Shown piece by piece: positions 1-59,165 of a stretch of DNA of 64,000 nt. This DNA comes from Lunularia cruciata (lineage: Eukaryota; Streptophyta; Marchantiopsida; Lunulariales; Lunulariaceae), in NCBI GenBank assembly GCA_948567375.1, contig OX419755.1:79936218-80000217 (forward strand). The letters run 5' to 3'. A program made the translations under genes and the position numbers. Under the pieces are notes generated by a model that was given only the letters and a program-made list of their open reading frames with translations, ran no database searches and was not told where the DNA came from. The stretch's first letter is position 1. Each line of letters opens with the position of its first letter.

Positions 1-797
1 TTGTTGTAATTGTGAGTCCCAAACTAGTCCAAGACCTCTCTCTTGAAAAGCATGAGAGCTTGGGAAACTCATAAGTGTGGGAAAAGTAGCTCTAGACTAT
101 CTAACTAGGTTCACCACTACCATAAGTGACCTATCAGCAACTACCACAGTTTGAGATTGACGCCCAACATCCAAGATGTCATCAACAATGATGTGGTCTA
201 GTTGCTAAATCCTATCATAAGCACACTATAAAACCTCTCTAGGTAAGAGGTTTGTTCACCAAAGATGAAGACAATGAGCCCATGATCCTACTTAGGCTGC
301 ATCTAACAATATAGTAGGTCCCATCCAAGAATGATCCTGATGTGTACTCACCACCACTTTGGTGTGAGAATCACCCATCAAAGGAACATTCTCTAAAAGG
401 TAAGCTGGAGAAACAAATTGATGGACCTGGAGATGTCAAAGTATAGGTAACATCTCCCAAAACACACCAGAATGGGGATCTTGAAGACCCAAACCTTGGC
501 CATATCCCTGGTATGGCCATCCAAAAATTAACAAATGAAAAGGCCTATGTATCTCCAAATCATACGCCCCCAATAAGGAAATATCTGCTAATAGTGCCTT
601 TTGATAACCCTTGACTGCTGACATTAGTAATAACTCAAGATATCAATAGGCCAAGTGTGCCACATGATGGAGAGAGACTCATCTAGTCATCTCATCTCTC
701 TCCACATACAAGTACCTCTATACTCGTATACCCTCCTATATACTACAACTAGTCTAGTGCTAATCTCACCAAACAACTCTTATAGACATACTCCCTT
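1..797 (-). pseudogene. C5-cytosine DNA methyltransferase domain of a retroelement polyprotein (decayed)
   Basis: Read on the minus strand from 797 to 1, one frame carries an ordered set of C5-methyltransferase landmarks with in-frame stops. A region like the end of motif I (RYLYVERDE, about 690-716) is followed by motif IV in the context FGWPYQGYG (PYQ at 508-516, where an active enzyme has PCQ). Next comes GLQDPHSGVFWEML, then motif VI ENV in YLLENVPLMGD (ENV at 385-393). A stretch ending in AH..LW.TNLLP resembles motif VIII of DNMT3-type enzymes. The domain continues the reading direction of the gag-protease region at 6363-9140, from which it is split by the gypsy insertion 798-6357. It presumably continued off the left edge towards reverse transcriptase. 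The catalytic Cys codon is TAC, consistent with TGC decay, and at least ten stops are present, so the domain is dead. Identification as a C5-MTase is fairly sure; the DNMT3-like affinity is an inference from motif spacing. Confidence 0.72.
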
Positions 798-1208
798 TGT
801 AGAAGACCAAATCCGAGGAGAGAAATAAAAGAATGGAAACTCACATTGGGACATTTGAATGAGGGAAAACTCCAAATGCCTAGCATGAGCTTTGGCTTTG
901 GTATTTATAGGTAGCATACAAGGCCCTTGAGAAGCTTCTCAAGAAGCTTCCTTGAGCCGCTTTCTTAGAGTGCAAGCCGAGTTAACTAGGAAGCTTCTCA
1001 AAAAGCTTCCTTCTAGAAGCCACCTATTTGGCGTGCAAGCTAAGCTAGTTAGAAGCTTCTAGAAGCTACCTGCTTGGAGTGCAAGTTAACTAGTTGGGAA
1101 GCTTCCCAAGAAGCTTTTTAGATGCTTTTGGAATATTCTAGGCTAATTTGGCTTATTCTCTACTTCATTAGCCTTACTAACTATGTCACTAAACTCCATA
1201 TTGTTACA
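798..1208 (-). repeat. 3' LTR of the gypsy element
   Basis: This 411-bp copy matches 5946-6357 closely along its whole length. On the minus strand it starts TGTAACAATATGG and ends with CTACA. It contains a TATA box (TATAAATA, minus, 902-909) and many GAAGCTTC palindromes at 931-1112. The matching TATA in the other copy reads TACAAATA. Confidence 0.93.
902..1112 (-). promoter_or_regulatory. LTR promoter with heat-shock-element-like array upstream of a TATA box
   Basis: Reading on the minus strand, GAAnnTTC modules lie 20 to 210 bp upstream of TATAAATA (902-909). Modules are at 931-938, 943-950, 990-997, 1011-1018 (TTCnnGAA), 1052-1064 and 1098-1105. The one at 1052-1064 has GAA, TTC and GAA at exact 5-bp spacing, which is a textbook three-unit heat shock element. 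The other pairs are separated by an extra 2 bp. Function is inferred only from the motif. Confidence 0.5.
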
Positions 1209-1219
1209 TATTCCCCCAC
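1209..1219 (-). other. Polypurine tract of the gypsy element
   Basis: On the minus strand GGTGGGGGAATA lies directly upstream of the 3' LTR, where plus-strand DNA priming is expected. Confidence 0.7.
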
Positions 1220-1243
1220 CGCTAGTTGGTGACGTCCTCATTG

Positions 1244-2401
1244 CTATTGAAGCTTCAAACTCATGGATGGCCATTTGTGCATTGTGGAGGTGAGAAAGAG
1301 GTTCCCATGTAGCATCATGAAGGAGGTACCTTTTCCAAAGGACCTTGTACTCCGTATGGTGGAGGCGTCCTTGTTGGATGTAGCGACATGCAAGGATACA
1401 ATCAACTTCATACTCCTCATGATCATTGATAGGGATAGGGGGAGGAGGAGGTTGGACTCAAGAGGAGAAAGAAGAGGGGTTAGGAACAAAGGTTTCAACT
1501 TGGAAACATGAAAGACAGGATGGATGCGCATATGACAAGGCAAGGCAAGTCGATAAGCAACAAGAGAGACAATTTGGGTGACATCAAAAGGTCCTATCTA
1601 ATTAGAGGCAAGTTTATGAACTTGGGTATTAAGAGGGAAGGTTAGATTACTAGAGGATAACATAACTTTATCACCAACTTCAAAGATGAGATCACGACAA
1701 TGATAGTCCGCATATTGTTTTTGACGATTCTAAGCAACAAGGAGGTGAGATTTGGCATGTTGGAGAGATTCAGAGATGGTGGTCAAGGAGGTTGAATTAT
1801 GGAGGACTTGAGATGGAGGAGGAGCAAGAAGAGAATTTCGGACAAGTGGATCTTGGCCAAAATTGAGAAAGAAAGGAGAGAATCCAATGCTTGCCTGTTT
1901 AGAATTATTGTATGCAAACTCCGTAGCTGCAAGACATTGATCCCAATTGATATGGTGAATGTTGACAAAGGCACAAAGCATATCTTCCAAGGTGCGATTT
2001 GTACATTCAGTTTGTCCATCAGTTTGAGGGTGATAGGCTATGGACAAAGCAAGCTTGGTGCCAAGTAGTTGGAAGAGTGCTTGCCAAAACTTTCCGGTGA
2101 AGTGAGGATCACGGTCGGAGATGAGTACACGTAGCATCCCATGATGTTTGAAGACATTATCAAAGTAGAGTTGCGACAAGGTTGGACAATCTACAGTATC
2201 AACAGTTGGTGCCAAATGGATTTGCTTACTAAGCTTATCCACAAACACCACAATTGTTGTATGACCTTGTTGTGTCTTGGGTAAGGAGGTGATGTGATCT
2301 AAGCTCACATGTTCCCAACAAGTAGTTGGAATGGGAAGTGGTTGAAGGAGCCCACTCGGCTTTTGGTTATTGGCCTTGTTACATTGACAACTCTCACACA
2401 A
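1244..2401 (-). pseudogene. Integrase of the gypsy element (catalytic core intact in one frame)
   Basis: The frame 2401-1730 encodes the integrase core with its catalytic triad visible: D in SLDHI, D in LISDRDPHF, and E in DGQTECTNRTLED, with the spacing expected of a DDE integrase. A zinc-binding remnant (CESCQCNK) precedes it. In another frame near 1543-1500 the motif [10 protein letters not shown] marks the C-terminal domain typical of plant gypsy integrases. A frameshift or stops separate the two parts. No chromodomain could be read after it. The protein would insert cDNA copies into the genome; this copy is broken at its C-terminal end. Confidence 0.85.
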
Positions 2402-2675
2402 TCAAACAAAGTCCCAAACATCTCGTGTCATGTCGGGCCACCACCATTGGCGTTGGAGGGTGCCCAAGGTCTTATCCACTCCCATGTGACAAGCTATTGG
2501 TAAATCATGGGCTTCTTGAAGGTGCACAAGTCAAAGATCACCTTTGGCTGGAACATAGATCTGGTCCGTATGGAATAGAAGGCCTTCCTTGGAGGAGAAG
2601 GTGTTGTACTCCTTGTTGCATGCTGTCAGACGACCATGTACCATTTGGAAGAAGGGATCTTTGTTGTAGAGCTGA

Positions 2676-4202
2676 TCAAAACTTGTTATGGACCTTGGGG
2701 ATTGGGGTCAATTGACTCCGTTGTAATTGCCGCCGTGATGAGAAGAAGAGCCTCCAAATCAGGTTGTCATGATAAAGCATCAAGGATAACGTGGAACTGA
2801 CTTGGTTTGTACTCAAGTTTGATGTCAAATAATTGGAGTTGCTCTTCCCATTGATGATGTCACTCTTCATGTGCTCCAAGTGTGGGGTCTGCAACAATGG
2901 GTTGTGATTAGTTTGCATGATCACTTGTTTCCCTAAGAGATAATGCTTCCATACCTTGGTGGCATATACCATTGCAAGTTGTTCCCGATCTTGAGCAGAG
3001 TAATTTCTTTCAGCTGTATTTAGTCAACAAGAAACAAAGGCAATGGGATGTAGCCCATTTGGGAATTCCTATTGCAACATAGCTCCAATTGCAAAGTTAG
3101 AAGCATCAAAATCAACCACACAAGGTAGTTGAGGATCATATGGTTGAAGAATGGGTCTTGAAGACACCATATGCTTTAACTTCTGGAATGCTTCTTCATG
3201 TTTGGTGGTTCACTAGAAGCTTGAGTTCTTTCCTAAGAGGTAAGTCAATGGTGCAACCACATGAGCATAATAGTGGATCAACCATTGGTAAAAGTTGGCT
3301 AATCCATTGAATGCCCATACTTCTGTAACATCTTTTGGGGTAGGCCAATCAGTAATGGCCTTGATCTTCTCTTCTTTCATCTTGATCCCCTCTGAGGAGA
3401 TCTTATGCCCCAAGAAGGTAACCTCCTTCTGCCAAAAGGCACACTTCAACTTCTTGCAGTCAAATTTCCATTGTCGTAGTCGTCTTAGGACTTCTCGTAC
3501 ATGATTCATGTGTTCTACCTCTATCTTGCTATAGATTAAGATATCATCCAATAACACCACCATGGACTGATCTAATAGTCCATCCAACACCCGATGCATC
3601 TGATTCATGAAGACTGTTGGAGCATTAGTGAGTTTGAAAGGTAGAACTCTCCACTCAAAATGCCCATAGCTTGCACGAAAGGTAATCTTTTTCACATCCT
3701 CTCTATCAATAGGAATTTTCCAATAGCCGCTACAACAATCCAACTTGGAAAAGTAGCGTGCTCCACTTAGTTGATCAAGCAAGTGATCAATCCGAGACAA
3801 GGGATATGCATTCTTCATGGTTTGCTTATTGAGCCCATGCTAATCAATACAAAAACAAAGTCCTCCATCCTTCTTTGGAACAAATAGTATCGGTACTCCA
3901 AAAGGAGAGGTACTATGTTGTATGAAGTCCTTCTCCAACAACTCTATAAGTGTTGTTTGAAACTCCTCCAACTCCTTTGGTGAGAGCCAATAGATCAGTC
4001 TACTCACTAGAGTACTCCTTGGCAATAACTCAATCTCAAAGGGCATACCTCGATCAGAGTGTAATCCCTTTGGCAGATAATCCAGAAACACGTCCGCAAA
4101 CTCCTTAACTATCCAATCAACCATTGCTTGATGAGACTCTTGGCCCTCTATAGATTGTTTTTGTGCAATCCACACTGCAAATATAGACTTATCTTCCTCC
4201 AA
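2676..4202 (-). pseudogene. Reverse transcriptase and RNase H of the gypsy element
   Basis: The frames 4202-3840 and 3818-3213 together form the RT. The first ends with the palm entry LFVPKKDGGLCFCID. The second carries KLDCCSGYWKIPI, FKLTNAPTVFMNQM and the active-site box VVLLDDILIYS, then the connection motif KEVTFLGHKIS. One in-frame stop near 3838 separates them. RNase H follows at 2972-2676, where MQTNHNPLL replaces the usual T-D-H motif, indicating loss of a catalytic residue. The order and motifs identify a Ty3/gypsy pol. Activity is excluded by the stops. Confidence 0.88.
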
Positions 4203-4406
4203 AGCTTGCTCCCTAGTTGCCTTCTTGGCAAACTTCCTATCTTGGGACTCATCTCCCTTCCAGGTTTGCTCTATGGCTACCTTCTCGACAAATTTCCCAT
4301 CTTGGGACTGACTATTCTTAGGTGTCTTACTCAGAGGTGCTAGACAACCTAATTGGAAATTCCTACCTTGGTGTTGTATTTGAATTTGGCGTCGGGTCCA
4401 ATCAAA

Positions 4407-4745
4407 TCAAACCTTATGATGTTCAAGCCAAGGTAGACCCAAAATGATATCATAGTGTAGAGGTGCCACTACAAACCTCATACACTTCAAATACTCCTCC
4501 CCAATCTTGAAGGTAACAGGATGCAAGGTGCGGAATGCAAAACCCTTTCTACCATTTGCTATCATCAAACTACTTCCAACCACTGGCTTGATAAGAATAC
4601 CCAATTCCTTTGCTACTTGCATAGACATGCAATTCTTTGAATTTCCAAAATCAACCAAAATCCTATAACCCCAATAAGATATCATACCTTGCAAGTGGAG
4701 CAAACTTGCATAGGTCAAGCTTTCAATCCCATTGGAACTAATCAA
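4407..4745 (-). pseudogene. Retropepsin (aspartic protease) of the gypsy element
   Basis: This 112-residue frame contains ILVDFGNSKNCMS, where an active retropepsin has D-S/T-G, followed by the second half motif IILGLPWLEHH that is typical of plant gypsy proteases. It lies between the gag zinc knuckle and RT, as expected. The active-site residue after Asp has changed from Ser/Thr to Phe, so it is probably inactive. Confidence 0.75.
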
Positions 4746-4849
4746 GCTCCCAATAGGCGGCTTGAAATGTCCTACTAGGATTCCTTGTTTCCCTAATCAT
4801 TCCGCTCCACAACCTCCACCTAGGCAACTTGTTGAGGTCATCCATTCTT

Positions 4850-5652
4850 GAGTGGACATTCAATAATGCAATGCCCTAATTGGTGACAATAAAAACAACC
4901 ACCATTTTATCACAATTTCTCTCTATCTACCGTGCTAAGTGGTCTTCGTTGAATGGCATCAATCTCCATTGATGTTGGTTCCTCCACTTGTGTGTAGTGC
5001 ATTGGTAGGCTCTATGGAGGTCAAGGTCGAGACCAAGTTGTTGCCACCAATGAATCAAAATGTTTAGCCAACCACATGGCTTCCTCCAAGTGTTGTGGCT
5101 CTTGCATGGTTATCTCTAATTTGGTTCTTGCCTTCAAGCCCCTCACAAATCAAGTCAAAACTTCACCTTCCAATATATCTAAGATTTTCATGATGGTGTT
5201 TTGGAACTGCGTGATGTAGCTTCTTATAGAGCCAATCTATTTCAACTCTGCAAACTTATCCCGTGCAGCTCGTGTGACATTTATAGCTTGGAACCGACTG
5301 ATTATTGCACTCTTGAATTTTGCCCATGTCAAGATTGGTGCAACAATTTGTCGTTCAGCTTGCTCTACTTGGAATCTCCACCATAGCTTTGCTACTCTAT
5401 CCAATTGGCTAGAAGCCAAGAGAATCTATTTTTGCTCATCTTATAGACTGGTAGTTTCAAAATAACGTTCACAATCAAACACAAAATTCTCCACTGCACC
5501 CAGAAGATTCTTGCCTTCAAATACCTTAGGTTTAGGGAATATGATCCGATCTTCTCCTTCTCAAATTGGTACTCTCTCCACTTGCTCTTATCGTTGAAGA
5601 TCTCATTCATCCAACAATCAAGTAAGGTGCTCGATTTGTTGCTGCATAGCAA
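4850..5652 (-). pseudogene. Gag of the gypsy element with zinc knuckle
   Basis: The frame 5419-5237 (LWWRFQVEQAERQ...) and its neighbours match the retrotransposon gag fold around a conserved W and the segment FKSAIISRFQ. Downstream on the minus strand, 4897-4856 encodes CFYCHQLGHCIIEC, a complete CCHC knuckle (C-x2-C-x4-H-x4-C). Multiple stops break the frame. Gag would form the particle in which reverse transcription occurs. Confidence 0.75.
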
Positions 5653-5932
5653 AGATATTATCAGGTATTTCCGTCATAGTTGCTACTCTATCACACCATT
5701 CCCAATCTATCTAATTTATTAACACATAGAAACAACACGTCCACCATTCTCCATAAGTTACAACTGGAAGCACCAAGGGTTCCTCAGATATGGTGATCAT
5801 ATGTAGAAAATCTTGTCCAAAGTGCGAGGTGATGAATTGTGTGAAACTATGCTTGGGTAGTATTTGGATGCAATCCCAATGGTTTGGTGGAAGTGGATTT
5901 GGTGGTCCATTAATTCCATCCATCCCATTCTT

Positions 5933-5944
5933 GCTTTGATACCA
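5933..5944 (-). other. Primer-binding site, initiator-Met tRNA type
   Basis: On the minus strand TGGTATCAAAGC lies one base after the 5' LTR end. It matches the common plant site complementary to the 3' end of initiator tRNA-Met, with one mismatch. Confidence 0.8.
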
Positions 5945-5945
5945 A

Positions 5946-6357
5946 TGTAAAAGACCAAATCCGAGGAGAGAAATAGGAGAATGGAAACTCACATTGGGAC
6001 ACTTAAGTGAGAGAAAACTCCAAATGCCTAGCATGAGCTTTGGCTTTGGTATTTGTAGGTAGCATACAAGGCCCTTGAGAAGCTTCTCAAGAAGCTTCCT
6101 TGAGCCGCTTTCTTAGAGTGCAAGCCAAGTTAACTAGGAAGCTTCTCAAGGAAACTTCTTTCTAGAAGTCGCCTACTTGGCGTGCAAGCTAAGCTAGTTC
6201 AAAGCTTCTAGAAGCTACCTATTTGGAGCACAAGTTAACTAGTTGGGAAGCTTCCCAAGAAGCTTCCTAGATGCTTTTGGAATATTCTAGGCTAATTTGG
6301 CTTATTCTCTACTTCATTAGCCTTACTAACTATGTCGCTAAACTCCATATTATTACA
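5946..6357 (-). repeat. 5' LTR of the gypsy element
   Basis: This 412-bp copy is the promoter-side LTR. It is highly similar to 798-1208. It keeps most GAAGCTTC modules, but its TATA box is changed to TACAAATA and the perfect three-unit heat-shock-like motif has lost its first unit. Confidence 0.93.
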
Positions 6358-6362
6358 CCCTT

Positions 6363-7520
6363 TATTGGATACTGCTAAGCAATGAGTGTGGTATCTAGAG
6401 GTGTCAAAGTAATCAACTCTAGAGGCTCATCCTCACAATCATCTCCTAGTTGTACAAAGGCTCCACTCCAAGCTTATTGCACCAACCAATCTGCATGCTA
6501 TTGTAATGTCTCCTCTAAACTCCACAATGAGACATCCAAGGTGGATGGAACAATCCCACTCGTACTCCAAATCTGAGTGATCTCCTCTGGTACTAAAGTA
6601 TCCTCTACATGGGCATTACCCTCCAATAAATTACCAAGCCAAGTAACAACACCACTAAAAGCTGAAATTGATGTTGTTATGGTCGTGGACTATAGTGAGC
6701 CAAGACTGCCACTACTGAAGCATACTAGTAGGTGACATACTCATCCCTCACCAAAGTGCCAACTTGGTCTATAGGAGGTTGTCTCTTCCTAATAGTCAAT
6801 ATTGAAACCCATGGGGTATAGCACTACTCCACCAACTAACACATCATATGACTCAACTATTGTTGCAATAGCTTGAGCTCTCACCACCAAGCTATCAATC
6901 GGGTGACTAGGCTGAACTTGGACAACAAGATCCCCACGTGTGATGTACTATGTCAAACCACCACCTAGAGATGTCTAGATCTAAAATAGACACCTCTCTA
7001 TATTGGTCTTTTGTAATGCTAGACCAACAATTGCAGCCTTCCCCAACATAAGGGGCTACTACCCAGAGTCTAATAAGACTCTTTTTGGTGTATAGACCTT
7101 CCTTAAAGGTCCCACCAAATGGAAAATTCCCCTTTGGTCATCCAATAGGACAAAACCAAGTGTGAACCGCACTCTCTCAAAGGCCAATCTAGCTGGCAAC
7201 TCCTCCAATCTAGCCACTGTTGCTTGGCATAAACCATTGGTTGCGGAGTGGATCCCATGTTCCTCAACCAAGTTAGCTCTACTATCAACCACCTCTGCTC
7301 TAGTAGTAGGAACCACATCATCACTACTCTCACAAAGCATGGTAGCTAATCTGAACACTAGGGCCGGGTCAACTCCTAATATGCACATGTCACTAGCTGA
7401 AAATAAAGGATAGCACATAATCAATTGAGTCGCACCCAACATTATGCTAGACTTAGTTTGTGTAGTAGTAGGTGGTGGATTAGTAGGTTGTCTATCATGC
7501 ACCCCATCACCACCTACCAC
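6363..7520 (-). pseudogene. Retropepsin and following conserved region of the methyltransferase retroelement
   Basis: The frame 7520-7059 ends in KRVLLDSG, the retropepsin active-site triad (D-S-G at 7062-7070). Two stops follow, and then the same frame continues with PLMLGKAAIVGLALQ. Further on are LVVQVQPSHPIDS and SYDVLVGGVVLYPMGF, which I recognise only as a conserved tail after such proteases. In-frame stops are frequent. At 6362 the frame is cut by the CCCTT duplication of the gypsy insertion and resumes as the methyltransferase at 797. The element was therefore gag-protease-methyltransferase in order. Confidence 0.68.
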
Positions 7521-7529
7521 ACCTGCACT

Positions 7530-9140
7530 AGAACGTCTACGAGCCCTAGATGATGTCTATAAGGCCTCAGAGAGTGTGTAAGACTAGGGAAGTCTGACTT
7601 GTCTCCTAACCTCTCCTCTCTGTGGGTTCCAACTCCACTAATGATCTTCTAGGCTCTAGCGTACATACTACACTCCTAGTCATTACTGCAGATGCATCTA
7701 CCTATGTTGCTCCGCACATGAAGTCCGAAGCATTCCTTCCATCCCTTCCATCCTTTTCACCAACATATGAGGTGGAAGCCTCAACACGTAAATCTGATCT
7801 CCTTTGAGCAATGGCCATGCTAGCCAATCTCTGCTCCAATCACTCAATGCGAGTAGCCATGGTTTTATCAGAAGTAAGGGCGGGTATTGCACCTCTACTA
7901 GGTGTAGATCCTCTACCACCACCTTGTCCTTTATGAATTGAAGCTCCTCTACTACCTGCCTTAGCAGCCCTACCACTCCTTAACTCCGAGTGTAGATCAA
8001 AGCACCGGTCACCAGTGTGACCAAATCTATGGCAATTCTCACATTGCCTCTATGTTAGCTATGATGCACTAGAGGTATTAGGTCCATTGCCTTAAGCGCA
8101 GTCTCTCTTATAGTGAGGTCCACCACAAGTCCAACAAGCAACACCACTACTCATTGGCTGCTGTTGACCCAAAAATGAAGGTAAGAGTCTAGCTCTACTA
8201 GGCTCTCCACTTGCTCCATAGGATCTGGGCTGTCCACCCTATCCTTGAAAACCAATTGGGCGTAGTGTACTCTATTGCACTCTAGAAGAAGTCACAACTA
8301 TGGATGAGGTATCCCTACCAAATCTAGATGTCACCACTCTCTCTTCCACCATGTTGAGCTCAATACACTCAGCCAAACCACAGACCACTACCAAAGTGGG
8401 CAAAGTAGCCTATAAACATGTAGCATCACAAACTCTACGTTGTAACTCCTTGTCTAGTATCCCATACCAAAACTAGATTGCTTGGGCCTTAGTAACTCCT
8501 TGAGTGAAACTAATCAATTGCCTCATGTGAGTGTATGCCTTGCATAGGCTCTCACTAGCCTTGTGCTGGAGCATGCAAGCTCATTAGCTTATTAGTCCAC
8601 ACTCCTTGGTAGTTCTACCTCAAACACTGGAAGAACTCTACCATGGAATTAAGCCTCGATATCACACCTTCCTATAGCGGTACCTCCACTCATAGTAGCA
8701 CTATCTCCAGCTAGTGCACATCCACTAGCTCCACCAATGTTGCTTGAGCTAGAACTCGTGGGTATCATTGATCTACTCATGGCAACCAAGTTTGAAGTGA
8801 TAGGGACATAGTTTGGAGACTAATATTGTCTCCATAACTCAATCTCCTCCAAGTAAGCTCTCCTGAATTTATGGTAATCGTCCATTGGCGGACACTCCAA
8901 ATACTAAAAAAACCCCTTCCATGCCATGAAGAGTGTGAACAAAGTTGGGTTCCGCATCTGTTGCAGATCACACCAACTATTGAACTCCTGGATGAAGTCA
9001 TCCAACTCAATAATACCCACTATACCAGAGTAATGCCTAGGGCCTTTGGAGGACTCATAAATCTTGTTCATGTCCCACAACAACGGTGCGGACACACCAA
9101 GTGCACTCTCAACTGAATCAACTCTTGGGTCAAACTCCAA
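7530..9140 (-). pseudogene. Gag of the methyltransferase retroelement, with two zinc knuckles
   Basis: On the minus strand the frame at 9140-8904 contains FNSWCDLQQMRNPTLFTLF and AWKGFF, and nearby frames add PPMDDYHKFRRAYLEEIELW; this gag core was read directly. Two CCHC knuckles follow: CWTCGGPHYKRDC (8136-8098) and CENCHRFGHTGDRC (8043-8002). Two knuckles in series before a protease fit a retroelement nucleocapsid. The frame is broken many times. The clade is not certain from the gag alone. Confidence 0.7.
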
Positions 9141-9180
9141 CTCAAAGTCAATCTACTCTCTCACTAGGACTTGAAATACA

Positions 9181-9191
9181 AGTTGATACCA
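9181..9191 (-). other. Possible primer-binding site of the methyltransferase retroelement
   Basis: TGGTATCAACT on the minus strand lies just upstream of the gag start and matches the first eight bases of the initiator-Met type site. A preceding LTR end is not clear, so this is tentative. Confidence 0.4.
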
Positions 9192-12183
9192 AGCACCACT
9201 CCAAGTAAACCCATTGTGTATTGCAAGGCTAACTCCTCTGGAATCCCCAAAGAACTCTGTCGTGACAAGTAACCGCAAACCACCAACCGCAAATTGCAAT
9301 TACCCCTCCAAGTGCCAACACTACCAACCAAGCACCACCAAGTGCCAACACCACCAACCAAGCACCACCAAGTGCCAACCCTAACGGAACACTACCCACT
9401 AATGTAACTCTAACTAAGACAACTATACTAGGAGAAAGGATGACCTATAACTAATCATCACAACACGCACTCTCATGGTCTATAAGTCATCACTTTTGGC
9501 CTCATTAGAGAGAAACATAGATAGTTTGATTGGCCATCACACCAGCCTCACTATTGAGAGCACACTAGAGCACCAACACTCTAAATTTAGGGCACCTCAC
9601 ACAAATACGGTGCACAAACAAGAAGTAGAGAATGGAGGGGGTCCAATCACAAGAAGGCTAAACAAAAACCCTCCATCTCATAAAGCAACACCGGATTGAC
9701 TCTATCACCATTTGGCATTTGACATAATCGGAGTACCGATTTGCTTCTTGAGTTATGAGGATCTCTAGAGAATGGGATCAAAGTTCTTTCACCAAAATAT
9801 GACGCAAATCCTTCACAAAATCTGACATAAATTTGACGTAAATTTGACATCAAATCCCTTAATTTGGCTGACCACTAAATCCTCCATTGACTCTTCTTTT
9901 GAGCCAAATTGGAAAAATCAGTGTTGTCTAATCTCTAATTCACGGGAGTGGGTTCCCAACTCCACCTTCAATTTCACTTTTTGAGCTCAACTTGCACTAG
10001 ATTGGTCATGTATTCAACTCTTGAGTTCAAAATCACAACTATCATTTGAAATCAACTTTCTCTAGCTCCAAATTTGGCCAGTGCTTCCATACACAGTCAC
10101 TCTTAGGGAAATTAGAACTACAATCATGGTACCATGATCCACCAGGCTTGGAGATACAACCACCACCATCCTCAGTTCCTGCACCCAATTTCCCCTTGAC
10201 TCTCACTTCTTCGTTGTAATCAGTTTGTTTACACCACTCAAATCAACTCAACTCAACTCAACTCATATCAATACTTGATATGTCACTCTATAAACTATGA
10301 AATTGGGCACTAATTACAATCAAGCCACACCCACTCTAGCTAAGAGAATCCAGGTGATACTTGCCGGCCTTTGTCCACCATAGCCAAGAACTCAAAGGCT
10401 CAACATTAGAGAAGTGAGCTCTATGGAGCTGCACTTCAAAAGTATACCCATGGACTTGAGCTAGGTCTGAAACCCTAACGGTCCCACTGATGGTCACACC
10501 CAATGGTGCAAAGTAACGATGGGCCCTACCATGAAATCAGTACCCTAAACACAAAATCTGACTGTTGGAAAGTAGTCTACAAGTGACTGCTAAAATACCT
10601 CTAACTACTATTACTGAAACTCCAATGTCTGAGCAATCTAGATGTGACACTAGAAATGGCATGACATCTTGGTAGATCTAACCATTGCTCAATCTAAATT
10701 TGAGCTAATATATATATCATAAGATTTGAGTGACTATATCATGAAATGCATCATGGACTTTGGTGTGCATCTCTCACTTGATATTATAAAATTTTACTTG
10801 ACATTATAAAAGTGTATCCCTTGCATGGCATATAGAGAACCACATGTGCACCAGTTTGGAAGTCTTATGAGAATTGGATATGGGAGACCCAAGCTCAATC
10901 TTAGTTCTATGGTAAACTCCTAAAAAGTAAAATAGAAGTTGTAAATCAAGGGTAAAGCATAGAACCAAGTTCCAAAGCTCTTCTCCCTGCAAGAGAGGAT
11001 CCTAATTGTCATGTAGAGGCACATCAATGAGTATGTTAGTAGTATGTGAGTGTGCATATGCTCACTAAGATCTGCTTGGAGCTTCCTAGAATCTAAAAAT
11101 ACAAATTTAATAAAATTGAGGAGTGTCTTGCATACATGGCTTGGTAGTAAGTCACAAGCCAAGTAAAAATATACCAGAAATTCATAAATTATCAATCCAC
11201 TATTGTGATAGGTGCCAATATAATATGATGACCCTCATATAAGAACATCTTTGCTAAACAAGGGACATCTAGAACCCAAGCTCCAATATATATATTGTTG
11301 GTGCTATGGCCTAGTGCTCTATGAAGCCACATTTGCATATGACAATAAGGAGAGCTATCTACTATCTATGCCACTCATTTGATAGCTATAGTAGTATGTA
11401 TGACCCTAAAAGAGTAGAAAAAGTATAGTAGATAGTATTTCAAACATCTACAAATGTGACAACAATGCTTGTGATAGCAAGGAAGTTTGTGCTAAATATA
11501 ATGTCCTAGGAAGGTAATCTAGTAAGAATGAAATAGACCACATGGATAGTACCCAACCTAAAGAGGAGGGTGAGCATGGGAAATGACATGTACTAAGGTG
11601 TCTAATATGAATGAACTACAAAAATACTCATGTTCCTAAGGAGAGTCTAAAATTCTCAAACCACCCACATGGAACTAGAATTTTGGTGGGAAATTTGAGG
11701 AAATAAGTACCATGCATTTGCTCTAAACTTTACATTGACAAGACTTGACTTGTCAAGAGACACAAGTGTAGGTCCTAGTTTTTTTCCTTGTTTGTTTTTT
11801 ATCCTTTTGCAAAAATATGGTGCCATTGAATGCCAAGCTGACTTTGTAATTCAAATGACATGTAATCCAAACCTTTGGCTAGAATAAGTTTTCTAACCAA
11901 AAACTCTCATTTGGATTATTCTCAATCTCATATTCTTGGTACTATTATTTTATAGGAAGTAACTAAAGAGGCTCAAACTTGTACGCTCTCCTTTGGTCCT
12001 TTTGCTATTTATCAGTATTTCAACTTTTTATTTATATTACATATTGGATTATCATCTAAGTAGATGTACCAAGATGGAACCAATGTATTCATTAGGTATC
12101 TCTTCATAATTGACATCCTAATAATATCATAAGGTTCCTTTTGCTTGGTTTTATTATCATTAACGTAGATTTGATGATGTTTA
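9192..12183. other. Repeat-derived sequence without a recognisable gene
   Basis: Part of this stretch is probably the 5' LTR of the methyltransferase element. The segment 9400-9660 resembles 53690-53950 in the right flank, which supports a repeat origin. A CAACT run lies near 10236-10262. The rest is AT-rich with only short, unsupported open frames. Confidence 0.5.
9301..9380. repeat. 30-bp tandem repeat, about 2.7 copies
   Basis: The unit AGCACCACCAAGTGCCAACA plus ten further bases repeats in exact 30-bp register at 9301, 9331 and 9361. The last copy is partial. It lies in the presumed LTR or leader upstream of the gag. Confidence 0.85.
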
Positions 12184-53176: not shown

Positions 53177-55291
53177 GTTCTTTGTACACGGAGCATTGAA
53201 GGAATTGCAGACTTCTACAATTTTCTTTGCAGACTCTTCCTTCTTGAGGAATGTAGCCCTAGTTTTCTCACAAGCCTCTCTCCCCAAAACCAATCTCCAA
53301 TCTGCCTCTATCCATCAAGCCGGATTGCCTCTCTTCCCTTCTTCCTTGGGAACCTCCTCATAATTGCTCATAGCTACTTCAGCCATGAACGTTGGAAAAC
53401 TCAAGTTCCAGTTCTAGGCCAAAAACCTGATACAAAGTCTACTCAGAACATTGATCCTTGTTGTCATATCTAATCTCCAAATTACAAGATTTCTCATTGC
53501 AAGTGAGGGACTCTTCTTCTCATCCTTTATTGGCATTGTGCAATCTTTTACTCGTGGTAGCTGGAAATGGATCCTCCTGTTGTCATACTTTTTCTTTTCT
53601 CTCTATGGGAACACATAGGATGCCTAGCTGTAGAGACTATAGATCAGAGGCTAGAGGTAAACCCGTAATGACTTGACTGAACATGCATGTGACCCTATCG
53701 CAAGAACCCACCTTTCTCATAACTAATATTCTTGCTATCGAGAAGGGTAGTACCAGGCAACCTAACATGTCATCACAACATGCACTCCTAGTCTACTGGT
53801 CATCACTTCCAGCATTACCAAGGAGAAATACACAGCACTCTTAGAAGGAAATAATCTAAGCACAATGCCCGCACACCAATCCAAGCCAACTGGGCGTACA
53901 AACAGGCATACAAGCACAAAGAGGATCCAATCACAAGAATACAGCAACAACTCTCTGTACTTCTTGTCAAAAAAGAGCTTTAGAGCCTTCTTGCTCTATC
54001 ATCAAGCTCATTTCAACCTGTACTCCAAACCTCCTCCCATCTGTACTTCAGATCTCAACAAATTTCTACTCCATGTGGGAATTTTCTATGTCTTTTTTAT
54101 GGAGAAAACTCTACGCAACTCATATGCAAATAACTATTTCTATATAGCTTGTATTTGAGTGTTCTAGGATTCAATGGAAATCTTGTGAGATCAGCTTTCA
54201 AATGATTCAAAATACACTTCAATCAGGTCACTACAACTTGCCTGAAAAGCTCTCAAAGTTGGTCAGGTTTTTGCAACTTTCACTCTAATTTCAAAATTCC
54301 CTTTTTAGGGGTTGCTCCTGGTTCTTGGCATATTTTCCCCAGATTTCTGATTCAAAAATAGATTTGATCCTCACAAAAAATCTGGAAAACCTGAAACCCT
54401 TAATCATAGTCACAAGATAGGAGAATTGATATCCAATCAAGATGAAAGATAAAATTGCTCTACCGAGGTTATGAAGTATTTTTAGCAGAATGTTTTGCAT
54501 CAGATCTCACTCTTCACAAGTCTAGAACCAACCAAATTTTCCACAATAGCTGGTTGCGTTCTTGTCTAAACTCCTGCAAATTTTGGTAGCCTAATCCAAC
54601 CCCAGTCCCTAGATGTGGATCAATTCTTGAGCTGTGCTAACTTGTGAGCTCTACAGACCCAAGTATACTTGATCAAAGACCCTGATTTCTCTATTTAAAG
54701 AATTGACATGAAACATTTGCAAAAAAGTGCAAAATCTATTCACCAACAACCTTAGAAATTTTCATAAGGAAATTGAAGCCACAACTTGAGAAGTGACCAA
54801 AACTCCAAACTTGGTCATTAGCTCTTCTCCAACACCTTACACCTCAAGAACTTCAACTTCAATCAATCAGATCTGATTTGTGATTAACCAAAACTAGAAC
54901 TTTTTTTGCTCAATACTGTAAATACTTTGTCTTCTCTCTAATCTTTTTAACAGATAGTGAAAATGTTGCAAGAAGCTCTCTCCATGGCCTACTTTGTGCT
55001 CTTGGGTATGAATTTTACCCCCCCTGATTCAGTCGATCATCTCCCCCCTAGAATTGGCTCAAATCATGTGATTTCTGTCTTCAAATAGTAGCCTTTCATC
55101 TCTACTTTTCAACCATGGTCTCCACTTCTTAAATGGCCTCCTTGAACTCCCTTGATGGTCAAAAAACTCCCAACTTCTCTCTTGGGACCCCAATCTCTTG
55201 CACATTTGTCCTTTAGTTTTTTTACTTTTTGACAAATGGACCCCACAACTCCACCTTGAAGCTTATGAGCAAACATTTAGGCATTCTCCAA

Positions 55292-56399: not shown

Positions 56400-57600
56400 A
56401 GGACGAGTCCATGGTCCAATATTTTTGAACTCTCCACCACTCAAGTGGCAAAAGGATTGCCCTCTAGGTCTACAAGTTGAATAGAGCCATTGTCATAAAT
56501 GTGCATTGCATGGTATGGTCCCATCCACCTTAGGTGTAGCTTGCCTCAAAAAATAATTCAGCAATTATCATATAACAACACCAAATCACCCTCCTAAACA
56601 ATAATAGGCTTAATTTTCTTATCATGCCTGAATTTCTGCTGTTCTTGTACTTCTTTTGTGGTTTGGGTTGTATTGTCTCTTTTCTCTTCTAACTACATTA
56701 GTTGATGGATCTGAAGATCTTGGCTTTCTTCCTCCAACAATTGTTCCTCACAAAGAATACAATGTGTTGGTAATTCAAATTCAATTGGTAGTATGTAATA
56801 CAAGCCTATGTCCAAAAGTAAGGAGTTTGTTCGATGGTAATCTTTTCAGTTGTTCCATATGCCTACAAAGCTGTTAGTAACTTTGTGTCCCAATCATAGG
56901 CATAATTGAGCGTCACCTTATTCAAAATTTTGCACAACAATCCATTTGCCTTCTTTATTAAGCCATTTACTTTTGGATTATAAGGAGTTGTCTTCCAATG
57001 TTTAATCTAGAAGTACTTGGTTATGCTTCCACCATGGAGTTCAAAAAATGAGTCCCCCTATCATGGACCAATTCCAAAGGACATCCGTAACATGAAATGA
57101 TGTTTTGAAAGAAGAATTTTGTGACTATTTTAGCATCATCTCACCGAGTTGCCTCAACTTCAACCATCTTGGTAGCATAATCAGTGCATACCAAGATGTG
57201 TCTCTTCCTTGTGAATCGAATTGTTAGTTGAATAGGACCCACAAAATCAATTGCCCATTTCTCAAATGGGGCTAATGGAAAAATTGGTCTCAAAGGCCAC
57301 TAAGAAGTAGCCGTCGGCTTTCTTGTTCTTTTACTAGCATCATAACTTTGGATATAGGTGTGAGTGTCCTTATACATTGTAGGCTACCAATACCCCGATG
57401 AAAGAATCTTCTTTACATTATTCTTTAGGGTATAGTGTCTTTCTGATGTCCTCCCAATGTGATGCTTCTGCAAGTAAGGATTCAATCACTCCTTTGACTT
57501 TGTATGCTTCCAAGCATATCCAAAGTACTTCATCTTCACCCACTTTAAATAGAATTTTCTGTTTTAGCTGATATGGTCCCATCTTCTTGAGGAAGACCAC
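56400..57600 (-). pseudogene. Integrase of the right gypsy element
   Basis: In one frame the core reads PFEKWAIDFVGPIQLTIRF, then CTDYATKMVEVEA and LELVHDRGTHFLN, giving the first two catalytic aspartates. The Glu region is degraded (NGLIKKANG). A C-terminal segment KLHLRWMGPYHAMHIYDNGS near 56530-56470 is the GPF/GPY-type domain. Stops and frameshifts are frequent. Confidence 0.75.
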
Positions 57601-57797
57601 CTCTACTGCAGGTCCAATCCCTCAAGATAATGGCAAGTATGCAAATAATGCTATTTTGCTGCATGCCTGGTACTTCACATTGCCATTAAATGATACAACT
57701 CTTCATCATGAAACTGATCATCAATTTCCAAGTCTTGGTCTTGAGTTTCCAACATGGATACAAAGTCTACATTTGAATGCAAAGCTCTCTTCCTTAC

Positions 57798-57983
57798 TTA
57801 TACAATGTATGTGAATTCTTGTAACAACAAGATCCATCTTGCAATTTGCCTAGAAAAATCCGCCTTCTTGACCAAATGTTGCAAAGCATAATGGTCCATA
57901 TAAAAGACAAACTTGTATCCCAAAAAATAGTGGCAAAACTTATTGCAGGCATACACCATTCCAAGTGCTTCTCTTTCAATCAT
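57798..57983 (-). pseudogene. RNase H of the right gypsy element
   Basis: The frame MIEREALGMVYACNKFCHYF, then MDHYALQHLVKKADFSRQ and IARWILLLQEF, matches gypsy RNase H. The D of the T-D-H motif is kept as MDH. It is open over 61 residues. Confidence 0.8.
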
Positions 57984-58139
57984 CTAATAGTTCTTTTTTG
58001 CAATTGAAAGTTGTCGATTGGCAAAGTAAATTGGGTAATCTTTCTTCTTCTTGTCCTTCTAACTTAAGATGACTCCAATTGCCATGGACAAAGTGACCAC
58101 ATACACATGAAACATGATATCCAATTTGGAGCCCTCATA

Positions 58140-59165
58140 ATTGGTGCTTCAACCAATTTTTTTCTTCAACACTTGGAAAGCTTCTTCTTGTTCTGTTTCT
58201 CACAAGTAGTCTTTGGACTTCTTTAGAAGCTTTTTTAGGGGTGCACCAAGCATCACATAGTTTGATACAAAGCGTTTGTAGTATCCAACATGTCCCAAGA
58301 AGACCCTCAGCTCCTGAATGTTTTTAGGGGATCTCAAAGCTGAGATGAATTTCACCTTCTCAACATCAACTTCAATACCTCAGCTTGAGATCCAATGCAC
58401 CAAAAGAATACCTTCCTTCATTGTGAAGAAGCATTTCTCTATGCATAAGGATAAGCCGGCACATTGATACCTTTCAAAATGTTGGCAAAGGTAATCCAAA
58501 TGTACTTCTCTTTGCTCAAACACAGAAAAATCATCATTGAAGACTTCCACAAATTTTGCACAAAAAATCTTTGAAGATTGCATTCATCATCCCTTGGAAA
58601 CTAGTGGGAGCATTACACAACCTAAAGGGCATTTGATTGTAAGAAAAAGTGCCGCAATTGGTAGTGAATATAGTTTTGTCTTTGTCTTCTTATGATTATA
58701 GCATGAGAATTCATTTAGAAAGCTATAGTAAGGATGACTAGCTACTTGGTCCAAAATTGTATTGGTAAAAGGTAAGGGATGATGATCCTTCCTTGTGATT
58801 GCATTCAGCTTGCAAAAGTCTTGGCACACTCAAATCTTCCTAGTCTTCTTCTTTGGAACAATGATAATGAGAGAAACCCACTCACTGCTTAAGATGGGAA
58901 AGATTATTTTGGCCCCTAAGTACTTGTCAATTTCATCTTTCACTAAGAATGATTACTTTGGGTTTAGGCGATACTACCTTTTTCAAACCAGAATTGCACC
59001 TTCAATAAGATCAATCAAATGTTCTCCAAATTGGCATAGAATACCCAACATTTGATCAATCAACCAAGTGAATACATTTTGGTATTCTATAAACAAGGCA
59101 ATGTATCCTACCAACTCCTCCAAAGGGATTGTTTTCAAAATATTCAAAAAATTTCCTTTGGACAA
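58140..59165 (-). pseudogene. Reverse transcriptase of the right gypsy element
   Basis: The frame 58829-58587 starts CQDFCKLNAITRKDHHPLPF and is followed by 58583-58380 with KFVEVFNDDFSVFEQREVHL, the RT palm with one of three active-site residues changed (N for M at the variable position). The upstream part (59165-58983) ends with LVGYIALFIEYQNVFTW. Several stops are present. Confidence 0.82.

What the first reader, a model, noticed from the sequence alone, without database searches (positions are those of the whole stretch)
1..9140. Retroelement that carried its own C5-cytosine DNA methyltransferase between protease and RT
The minus strand gives gag with two zinc knuckles, a D-S-G protease, and then a domain with PxQ (motif IV), ENV (motif VI) and a DNMT3-like AH...W.TNLLP segment, all in order once the nested gypsy is removed. 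Retrotransposon-borne cytosine methyltransferases have been reported in a few algal and protist lineages; a copy in a land-plant-like genome would be notable. Such an enzyme could mark the element's own DNA or interfere with host silencing. This copy is dead, but intact relatives may exist elsewhere in the genome.
Basis: partly seen in the sequence, partly recalled or inferred. Interest (0 to 1): 0.88.

Follow-up and report, generated by a model that had tools for sequence, protein, structure and literature searches.

The report
Jumping gene carrying a DNA methyltransferase
A plant-like genome carries many copies of a virus-like jumping gene that encodes its own DNA-methylating enzyme, the kind of mark hosts normally use to silence jumping genes, apparently made together with its shell proteins.

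Summary
The minus strand of window 1-10666 is one old, dead copy of a Ty3/gypsy-type retroelement, split by a younger gypsy (798-6357, target duplication CCCTT). It carries gag, two zinc knuckles, a DSG protease and a DNMT3-like cytosine methyltransferase. The rest of the same copy lies just left of the window (L035): end of the DNMT, RT, RNase H, integrase, PHD finger.

The ORF1/ORF2 junction occurs at 941 places in the genome. Of 20 fetched copies, 18 have the order gag-protease-DNMT-UAG-RT-RNaseH-integrase-PHD; one lacks gag, one PHD. The UAG sits in the tobamovirus readthrough context (UAG CARYYA); 914 of 941 places read UAG. A related element with near-random silent sites keeps UAG CARYYA at the same junction with different bases. 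So the DNMT is probably made at Gag level, upstream of a recoding stop.

Copies have split direct repeats (A1...B1-A2-B2), TG..CA ends and exact 4-bp target duplications (18 of 18). Relatives occur in Marchantia, Calypogeia, Sphagnum and green algae, with the DNMT either before RT or between RNase H and integrase.

DNMT3-gypsies are known from Klebsormidium (KnitGypsy-Dnmt3); this is a variant with new features. Activity was not tested.

The parts
1..10666 (-). One dead copy of the DNMT retroelement, read leftwards; interrupted by a nested gypsy; continues beyond the window to about L035:1208 (G000:C1:79931425)
   Evidence: 71-88% DNA identity to genome copy L018 by segment; 4-bp duplication AAGA/AACA (3 of 4 match)
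10217..10666 (-). Repeat A1 (left end of the element; starts TGTCATGCC)
   Evidence: 81% to A2 of L018; 80.7% to its own A2 in L035
8287..9002 (-). gag capsid region
   Evidence: tblastn with L018 gag E=2e-92; Pfam Retrotrans_gag on L018 only E=0.005, below cut-off
7957..8151 (-). two CCHC zinc knuckles
   Evidence: E=1.5e-28 to L018
6717..7271 (-). retropepsin-type protease with DSG
   Evidence: 76% to L018, E=1e-87; no Pfam hit for L018 itself, but some relatives with this region carry PF13650 or PF13975
6372..6662 (-). linker between protease and DNMT
   Evidence: contiguous with the DNMT in P0002 and P0004
1..796 (-). DNMT3-like C5-cytosine methyltransferase, most of the domain; the last part lies left of the window
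   Evidence: (84% DNA identity to L018)
508..516 (-). motif IV, PYQ (catalytic Cys replaced)
   Evidence: PCQ in 20 of 20 fetched genome copies
385..393 (-). motif VI, ENV
241..279 (-). motif VIII region AHCLHLW.TNLLP
798..6357 (-). nested younger gypsy element (LTRs about 798-1208 and 5946-6357) inserted just before the DNMT motif I
793..797 (.). target-site duplication CCCTT of the nested gypsy, left copy
6358..6362 (.). target-site duplication CCCTT of the nested gypsy, right copy

Best explanation
It is a Ty3/gypsy-type retroelement family whose ORF1 codes Gag-protease-DNMT3-like C5-cytosine methyltransferase. ORF1 ends at a conserved UAG in the UAG-CARYYA context. Occasional readthrough makes the longer product with RT, RNase H, integrase and a C-terminal PHD finger. 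Shown: the order, the stop and its context, conserved catalytic motifs, the end structure, the 4-bp duplications, high copy number, and matching DNMT and RT trees. Inferred: the DNMT is made at Gag level, is carried in the particle, and methylates the element's own new DNA before or at integration. That would give new copies a mark like host heterochromatin and shield cytosines. Also inferred: the PHD finger steers integration to particular histone marks, and the ends are completed on the internal B1-A2 junction. The window copy is an old, dead member.
For: Homology of the DNMT. Motif IV Cys in 72 of 82 relatives (of the other 10: 2 differ, 2 gaps, 6 not aligned) and in 20 of 20 fetched copies. 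Rest of the same copy in L035. 126 scored matches in the genome. Domain order in the fetched copies: 18 of 20 complete, 2 lacking one end region. UAG in 20 of 20 copies and 914 of 941 places. L101, 46-52% identical in the DNMT, keeps UAG-CAATCA at the same junction although fourfold sites of RT are near random (24 of 72 same); UAG-CARYYA occurs once in each of the two fetched stretches, at this junction. CARYYA as readthrough signal: PMC3542737, one passage. TSD 18 of 18. The DNMT tree and the RT tree both split by layout. To two Marchantia ORF1 proteins, P0012 and P0013, the DNMT is 72 and 74% identical, the linker 47 and 57%. CG and CHG decay of the window copy.
Against: No activity, expression or readthrough data. 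The CG/CHG decay is what host enzymes would also cause. dN/dS among 20 copies (0.30 per site for shared variants in DNMT; 0.25 RT) rests on few changes, and on copies picked by DNMT match and long open frame. No structure model could be made. Several relatives (P0054, P0058, P0063, P0081 and others) have DNMT and RT in one frame, so the stop is not general. Self-methylation is argued by analogy with the 2018 work on other elements.
Confidence: 0.72

Rival explanations
1. The DNMT is a passenger without function, carried along by a successful element.
For: No activity test. Within-family selection is weakly resolved: 12 silent and 11 amino-acid shared variants among 20 copies.
Against: Motif IV Cys in 72 of 82 relatives, which reach down to about 35% identity. 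DNMT 72 and 74% identical to P0012 and P0013 of Marchantia while the neighbouring linker is 47 and 57%. DNMT and RT trees agree on the two layouts.
Confidence: 0.12
2. The DNMT works on the host rather than on the element: it disturbs or floods host silencing, or acts as a decoy.
For: Gag-level dose inferred from the stop position. 941 junctions in the genome.
Against: A methylating enzyme would be expected to add silencing marks. The window copy decayed as heavily methylated DNA does. No host methylation data were available.
Confidence: 0.15
3. A chance juxtaposition: an element inserted next to, or into, a host DNMT3 gene or pseudogene.
For: The host seems to have its own DNMT3 gene in at least two pieces, as exons, and a DRM-like gene.
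Against: Protease-DNMT-UAG-RT in 20 of 20 fetched copies on several contigs. The host DNMT3 pieces are closer to human DNMT3A (41 and 43%) than to the element enzyme (32% over 57 residues). Same order in Marchantia and Sphagnum proteins and in L101.
Confidence: 0.01
4. The UAG is a true end of ORF1, and ORF2 is made by splicing or internal initiation; the CARYYA context is coincidence.
For: Marchantia and Sphagnum gene models that reach RT skip the stop region, as a spliced RNA would.
Against: The frame goes on past the stop in 20 of 20 copies. The readthrough hexamer rule is kept in two families far apart, with different bases. Gene-finding software cannot pass a stop and may invent introns (general knowledge).
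Confidence: 0.2

Closest known systems
KnitGypsy-Dnmt3 of Klebsormidium nitens (PMC5890265; section 9 read, other passages seen)
   Same: Gypsy-type domain composition, DNMT3-type enzyme in the polyprotein, DIRS-like repeat structure, purifying selection reported there
   Different: Here in a land-plant-like genome with 941 junctions; DNMT lies upstream of a UAG-CARYYA stop with gag and protease; PHD finger; 4-bp duplications measured. The paper places its DNMT in the Pol polyprotein ORF; its sequences were not held here, so kinship was not tested
SymbioDIRS-Dnmt3 of Symbiodinium (PMC5890265; passages)
   Same: DNMT3 in a retroelement with A-coding-B-A-B repeats; more than one domain order
   Different: That one uses a tyrosine recombinase; this one has an rve integrase and 4-bp duplications
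Ty3/gypsy chromoviruses (recalled)
   Same: gag-pro-RT-RH-INT order apart from the DNMT; a chromatin-reader-like domain behind the integrase
   Different: PHD finger instead of a chromodomain; DNMT; no ordinary LTR pair
Tobamovirus replicase readthrough, UAG_CAR_YYA (PMC3542737; one passage)
   Same: same stop and hexamer rule
   Different: found here between Gag-protease-DNMT and RT

Membership tests
C5-cytosine DNA methyltransferase, DNMT3 type | motifs I, IV (PC), VI (ENV), VIII, X in order | tested here: met
   20 of 20 fetched copies carry PCQ and ENV; single changes in motif I (L023), VIII (L019) and X (L020); the window copy has lost the Cys
C5-cytosine DNA methyltransferase, DNMT3 type | closest solved relatives are DNMT3 | tested here: met
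   29 of 30 PDB hits DNMT3A/B/C
C5-cytosine DNA methyltransferase, DNMT3 type | methyltransferase activity | not testable with these tools
   no bench data
Ty3/gypsy retrotransposon | RT-RNaseH-integrase order with rve integrase | tested here: met
   RVT_1 1e-32, RT_RNaseH 7e-38, H2C2 4e-18, rve 3e-13; order in 20 of 20
Ty3/gypsy retrotransposon | two identical long terminal repeats | tested here: not met
   A1 at the left, B1-A2-B2 at the right; 18 of 20 copies show the right-hand block
DIRS/PAT order | split direct repeats | tested here: met
DIRS/PAT order | tyrosine recombinase and no target duplication | tested here: not met
   rve integrase; exact 4-bp duplication in 18 of 18
KnitGypsy-Dnmt3 | gypsy domains with DNMT3 and DIRS-like repeats | tested here: met
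KnitGypsy-Dnmt3 | sequence kinship with the Klebsormidium elements | not tested
   no protein named as Klebsormidium among the listed hits (most hits are unnamed; one search lists 120 of 354)
UAG-CARYYA readthrough | UAG followed by CARYYA with an open frame beyond | tested here: met
UAG-CARYYA readthrough | measured readthrough | not testable with these tools
   reporter assay needed

The most novel reading that the evidence does not exclude
An old lineage of retroelements in the green plants has made a DNA methyltransferase a Gag-level component of its particle: the enzyme lies upstream of the recoding stop that normally separates shell from enzymes. The element marks its own DNA before integration and uses a PHD finger to place copies. 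In the sister layout the same enzyme sits between RNase H and integrase, after a single move.
Probability: 0.35. Interest if true: 0.87.

Novelty: new variant of a known kind. Interest (0 to 1): 0.74.

Why it matters
Cytosine methylation is a main way plants silence transposons, so an abundant plant transposon that supplies its own DNMT3-like enzyme is a paradox. Relatives are annotated in Marchantia polymorpha, a laboratory model, so enzyme activity, readthrough and methylation can be tested directly. The conserved stop predicts a dose (enzyme at Gag level) that separates 'marks its own cDNA' from 'accessory to RT'. Annotation also suffers: some Marchantia and Sphagnum gene models that are pieces of this element bear the name DNA (cytosine-5-)-methyltransferase, and a contig filed as cyanobacterial carries a relative with both ORFs.

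Tried and rejected
Pfam on the decayed window piece alone: below cut-off; relatives settled it. Viral contigs with the window piece: none. Viral contigs with alignment A1: 47 loci of weak, short matches (25-44% identity) that I did not look into one by one. Genome contigs: 21 loci, of which I examined one, L101, a gypsy-DNMT element filed as a cyanobacterial MAG. A tRNA primer site beside A1: none that I saw by eye in the printed leaders of four copies; no search was run. A PF00145 family scan of the own genome and a genome-wide count of the B1-A2 junction did not complete. Structure prediction was never accepted. Host DNMT3 capture considered and rejected. Scripts that failed: in part; time limit; redone. 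Literature: 10 searches; in what I saw no paper describes this element in liverworts. PMC12344493 (passages) says DNMT3 in retrotransposons was reported before in streptophytes and dinoflagellates. PMC6317226, PMC12885004, PMC10952607, PMC8616336 (passages): no such element found in the passages. Subscription papers are not covered.
Full report
What is in the window. The minus strand of window 1-10666 is one old copy of a retroelement, cut by a younger gypsy at 798-6357 (LTRs found, target duplication CCCTT read). The pieces were searched apart. Read leftwards they hold repeat A1, gag, two CCHC knuckles, a DSG protease, a linker and a DNMT. DNA identity to genome copy L018 is 84% for the DNMT part, 83% for ORF1, 81% for A1 and 71% for the leader. 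The copy is dead: 6 in-frame stops in the 214-aa DNMT piece, a frame change after motif I, and PYQ for PCQ. The window ends before its RT. The neighbouring 6 kb (L035) holds the end of the DNMT, a TAG followed by CAGCCA, RT, RNase H, integrase, PHD, and the right-hand repeats.

The methyltransferase is real. The masked piece found 9 proteins, best E=7.4e-58, 57% identical; one is from Marchantia paleacea. Pfam on the decayed piece alone failed (E=0.3). The same domain from copy L018 scores 28 bits (cut-off 22), and 29 of its 30 PDB hits are DNMT3A/B/C, best 1.8e-10. Among 82 relatives the motif IV Cys is present in 72; 2 differ, 2 have gaps, 6 were not aligned there. ENV is in 64 and EHV in 11. 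Gag of L018 reaches only E=0.005 in Pfam, below its cut-off, and its protease has no Pfam hit; these two rest on zinc knuckles, the DSG motif and on Pfam protease labels in some relatives.

The genome is full of it. A protein search of the own genome (566 Mb) scored 126 matches (the tool scores only the best candidates), all at E 2.9e-125 or better; by my count of the listing 86 of 126 have no stop inside. I fetched 20 of them, mostly ones with long open frames, so they are biased to intact ones. 18 of 20 have gag, knuckles, protease, DNMT, UAG, RT, RNase H, integrase and PHD in this order; L020 lacks the PHD and L023 gag and knuckles. A 29-base pattern across the ORF1/ORF2 junction, with the stop codon left free, has 941 exact places and none in the reversed control.

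The stop. In 20 of 20 copies ORF1 ends at TAG followed by CAGCCA or CAGCTA, and the frame goes on; in L018 and L023 ORF2 is open for 1037 residues. Genome-wide 914 of 941 places have TAG; among the first 100 listed there were 97 TAG, 2 TAA and 1 GAG. UAG_CAR_YYA is the consensus for efficient readthrough in tobamoviruses (PMC3542737, passage). A contig filed as a cyanobacterial MAG (L101), which by its content I take to be eukaryotic, carries a related element: gag, protease, DNMT (46%, 52%), TAG, CAATCA, then RT, RNase H, integrase, PHD in the same frame. Fourfold sites of its RT are near random against L018 (24 of 72 the same), yet the stop and the CARYYA rule are kept with other bases; UAG-CARYYA occurs once in each fetched stretch, at this junction. 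Of 43 relatives that end in a DNMT after gag or protease, 29 have a domain match longer than 300 residues and end 31-185 residues after it; some of these may simply stop at a contig end. Gene models of Marchantia and Sphagnum that reach RT skip the stop region. Against generality: another group (P0054, P0058, P0063, P0081 and kin) has DNMT and RT in one frame.

The ends. There is no ordinary LTR pair. A1 (about 455 bp) is at the left; B1 (107), A2, B2 are at the right. 18 of 20 copies show the right-hand block with a sharp end. All 18 with both ends have TG..CA termini and an exact 4-bp duplication. B1 and A2 are spaced by 2 nt in 16 of 20 (GC 14, GT 1, CC 1; 4 not matched), which I read as the joined, unprocessed ends. 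A1 and A2 are on average 98.0% identical in 17 copies and 80.7% in the window copy. So integration is most likely by the rve integrase although the repeats look like those of DIRS/PAT, as described for KnitGypsy-Dnmt3 (PMC5890265, section 9).

Relatives and history. The second and third protein searches returned 73 proteins and 354 (120 listed; candidates capped at 8000): Marchantia, Calypogeia, Sphagnum, Haematococcus, an entry labelled Chrzof1 (Chromochloris, my reading of the label), and many unnamed. Of 160 proteins mapped, 56 show the DNMT alone; 59 fit gag-protease-DNMT(-RT) and 45 fit RT-RNaseH-DNMT-integrase(-PHD), 14 of the latter judged only by an integrase directly behind the DNMT (my tally). 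On a DNMT tree of 68 element rows (of 88 of suitable length, near-copies dropped) the layout changes once, branch support 98 by SH-aLRT in a quick search. On an RT+RNaseH tree of 26 element rows the second layout is again one side of a branch (99); the two window gypsies used as outgroup do not group, and P0081 sits beside one of them on a long branch. DNMT and RT therefore seem to have travelled together. The DNMT3A outgroup branch is long, so the direction of the move is open. The rows named from Marchantia, Calypogeia and Sphagnum in the first tree fall in one clade with the own copies (23 rows, 100/99). The host's own DNMT3-like and DRM-like genes are separate (the DNMT3 stretch scored has one stop inside, as expected if it runs into an intron).

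Selection and methylation. In DNMT the shared variants among 20 copies are 12 silent and 11 amino-acid changing (per-site ratio 0.30; gag 0.19, protease 0.22, RT 0.25, RNase H 0.14, integrase 0.51, PHD 1 silent and 0 changing): consistent with constraint, weak in number, and biased by the way copies were picked. Between the window copy and L018, C to T changes hit 39% of CG, 36% of CHG and 9.6% of CHH sites against 4.3% A/T transitions. This fits a long methylated past but does not say which enzyme did it.

Mechanism. Most likely the enzyme is made with Gag, packed in the particle, and methylates new element DNA; the 2018 paper proposes self-methylation for its elements (abstract and discussion passages). 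The Gag-level dose follows from the stop position and is inferred, as is the role of the PHD finger. Neither activity nor readthrough was tested.

Verdict. Real, abundant, and of a known kind in a new setting with new anatomy.

Noticed in passing
L101 (CADCWO010000201.1): A 9.2-kb contig filed as a Synechococcales MAG is a gypsy-DNMT element with overlapping ends (57 bp); likely eukaryotic contamination in a reference genome. P0034, named as an Obscuribacterales methyltransferase, may be the same kind of case.
   Followed up: partly
window 798-6357: The nested gypsy has LTR pieces 93 and 96% identical, so it is much younger than the copy it broke (A1-A2 80.7%).
   Followed up: partly
window 57036-58982: Decayed RT, RNase H and integrase pieces of another gypsy, about 24-29% identical to the DNMT element.
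   Followed up: no
window 53756-53835: An 80-bp stretch 75% similar to the region at the start of the element's ORF1, isolated from any other part of it.
   Followed up: no
P0026 and P0050 (Sphagnum): Sphagnum (moss) rows group with Marchantia to the exclusion of the liverwort Calypogeia in the DNMT tree (96/91); horizontal transfer or incomplete sampling.
   Followed up: no
P0058, P0063 and relatives: A group with EHV in place of ENV in motif VI, with DNMT and RT in one open frame and no stop between.
   Followed up: no
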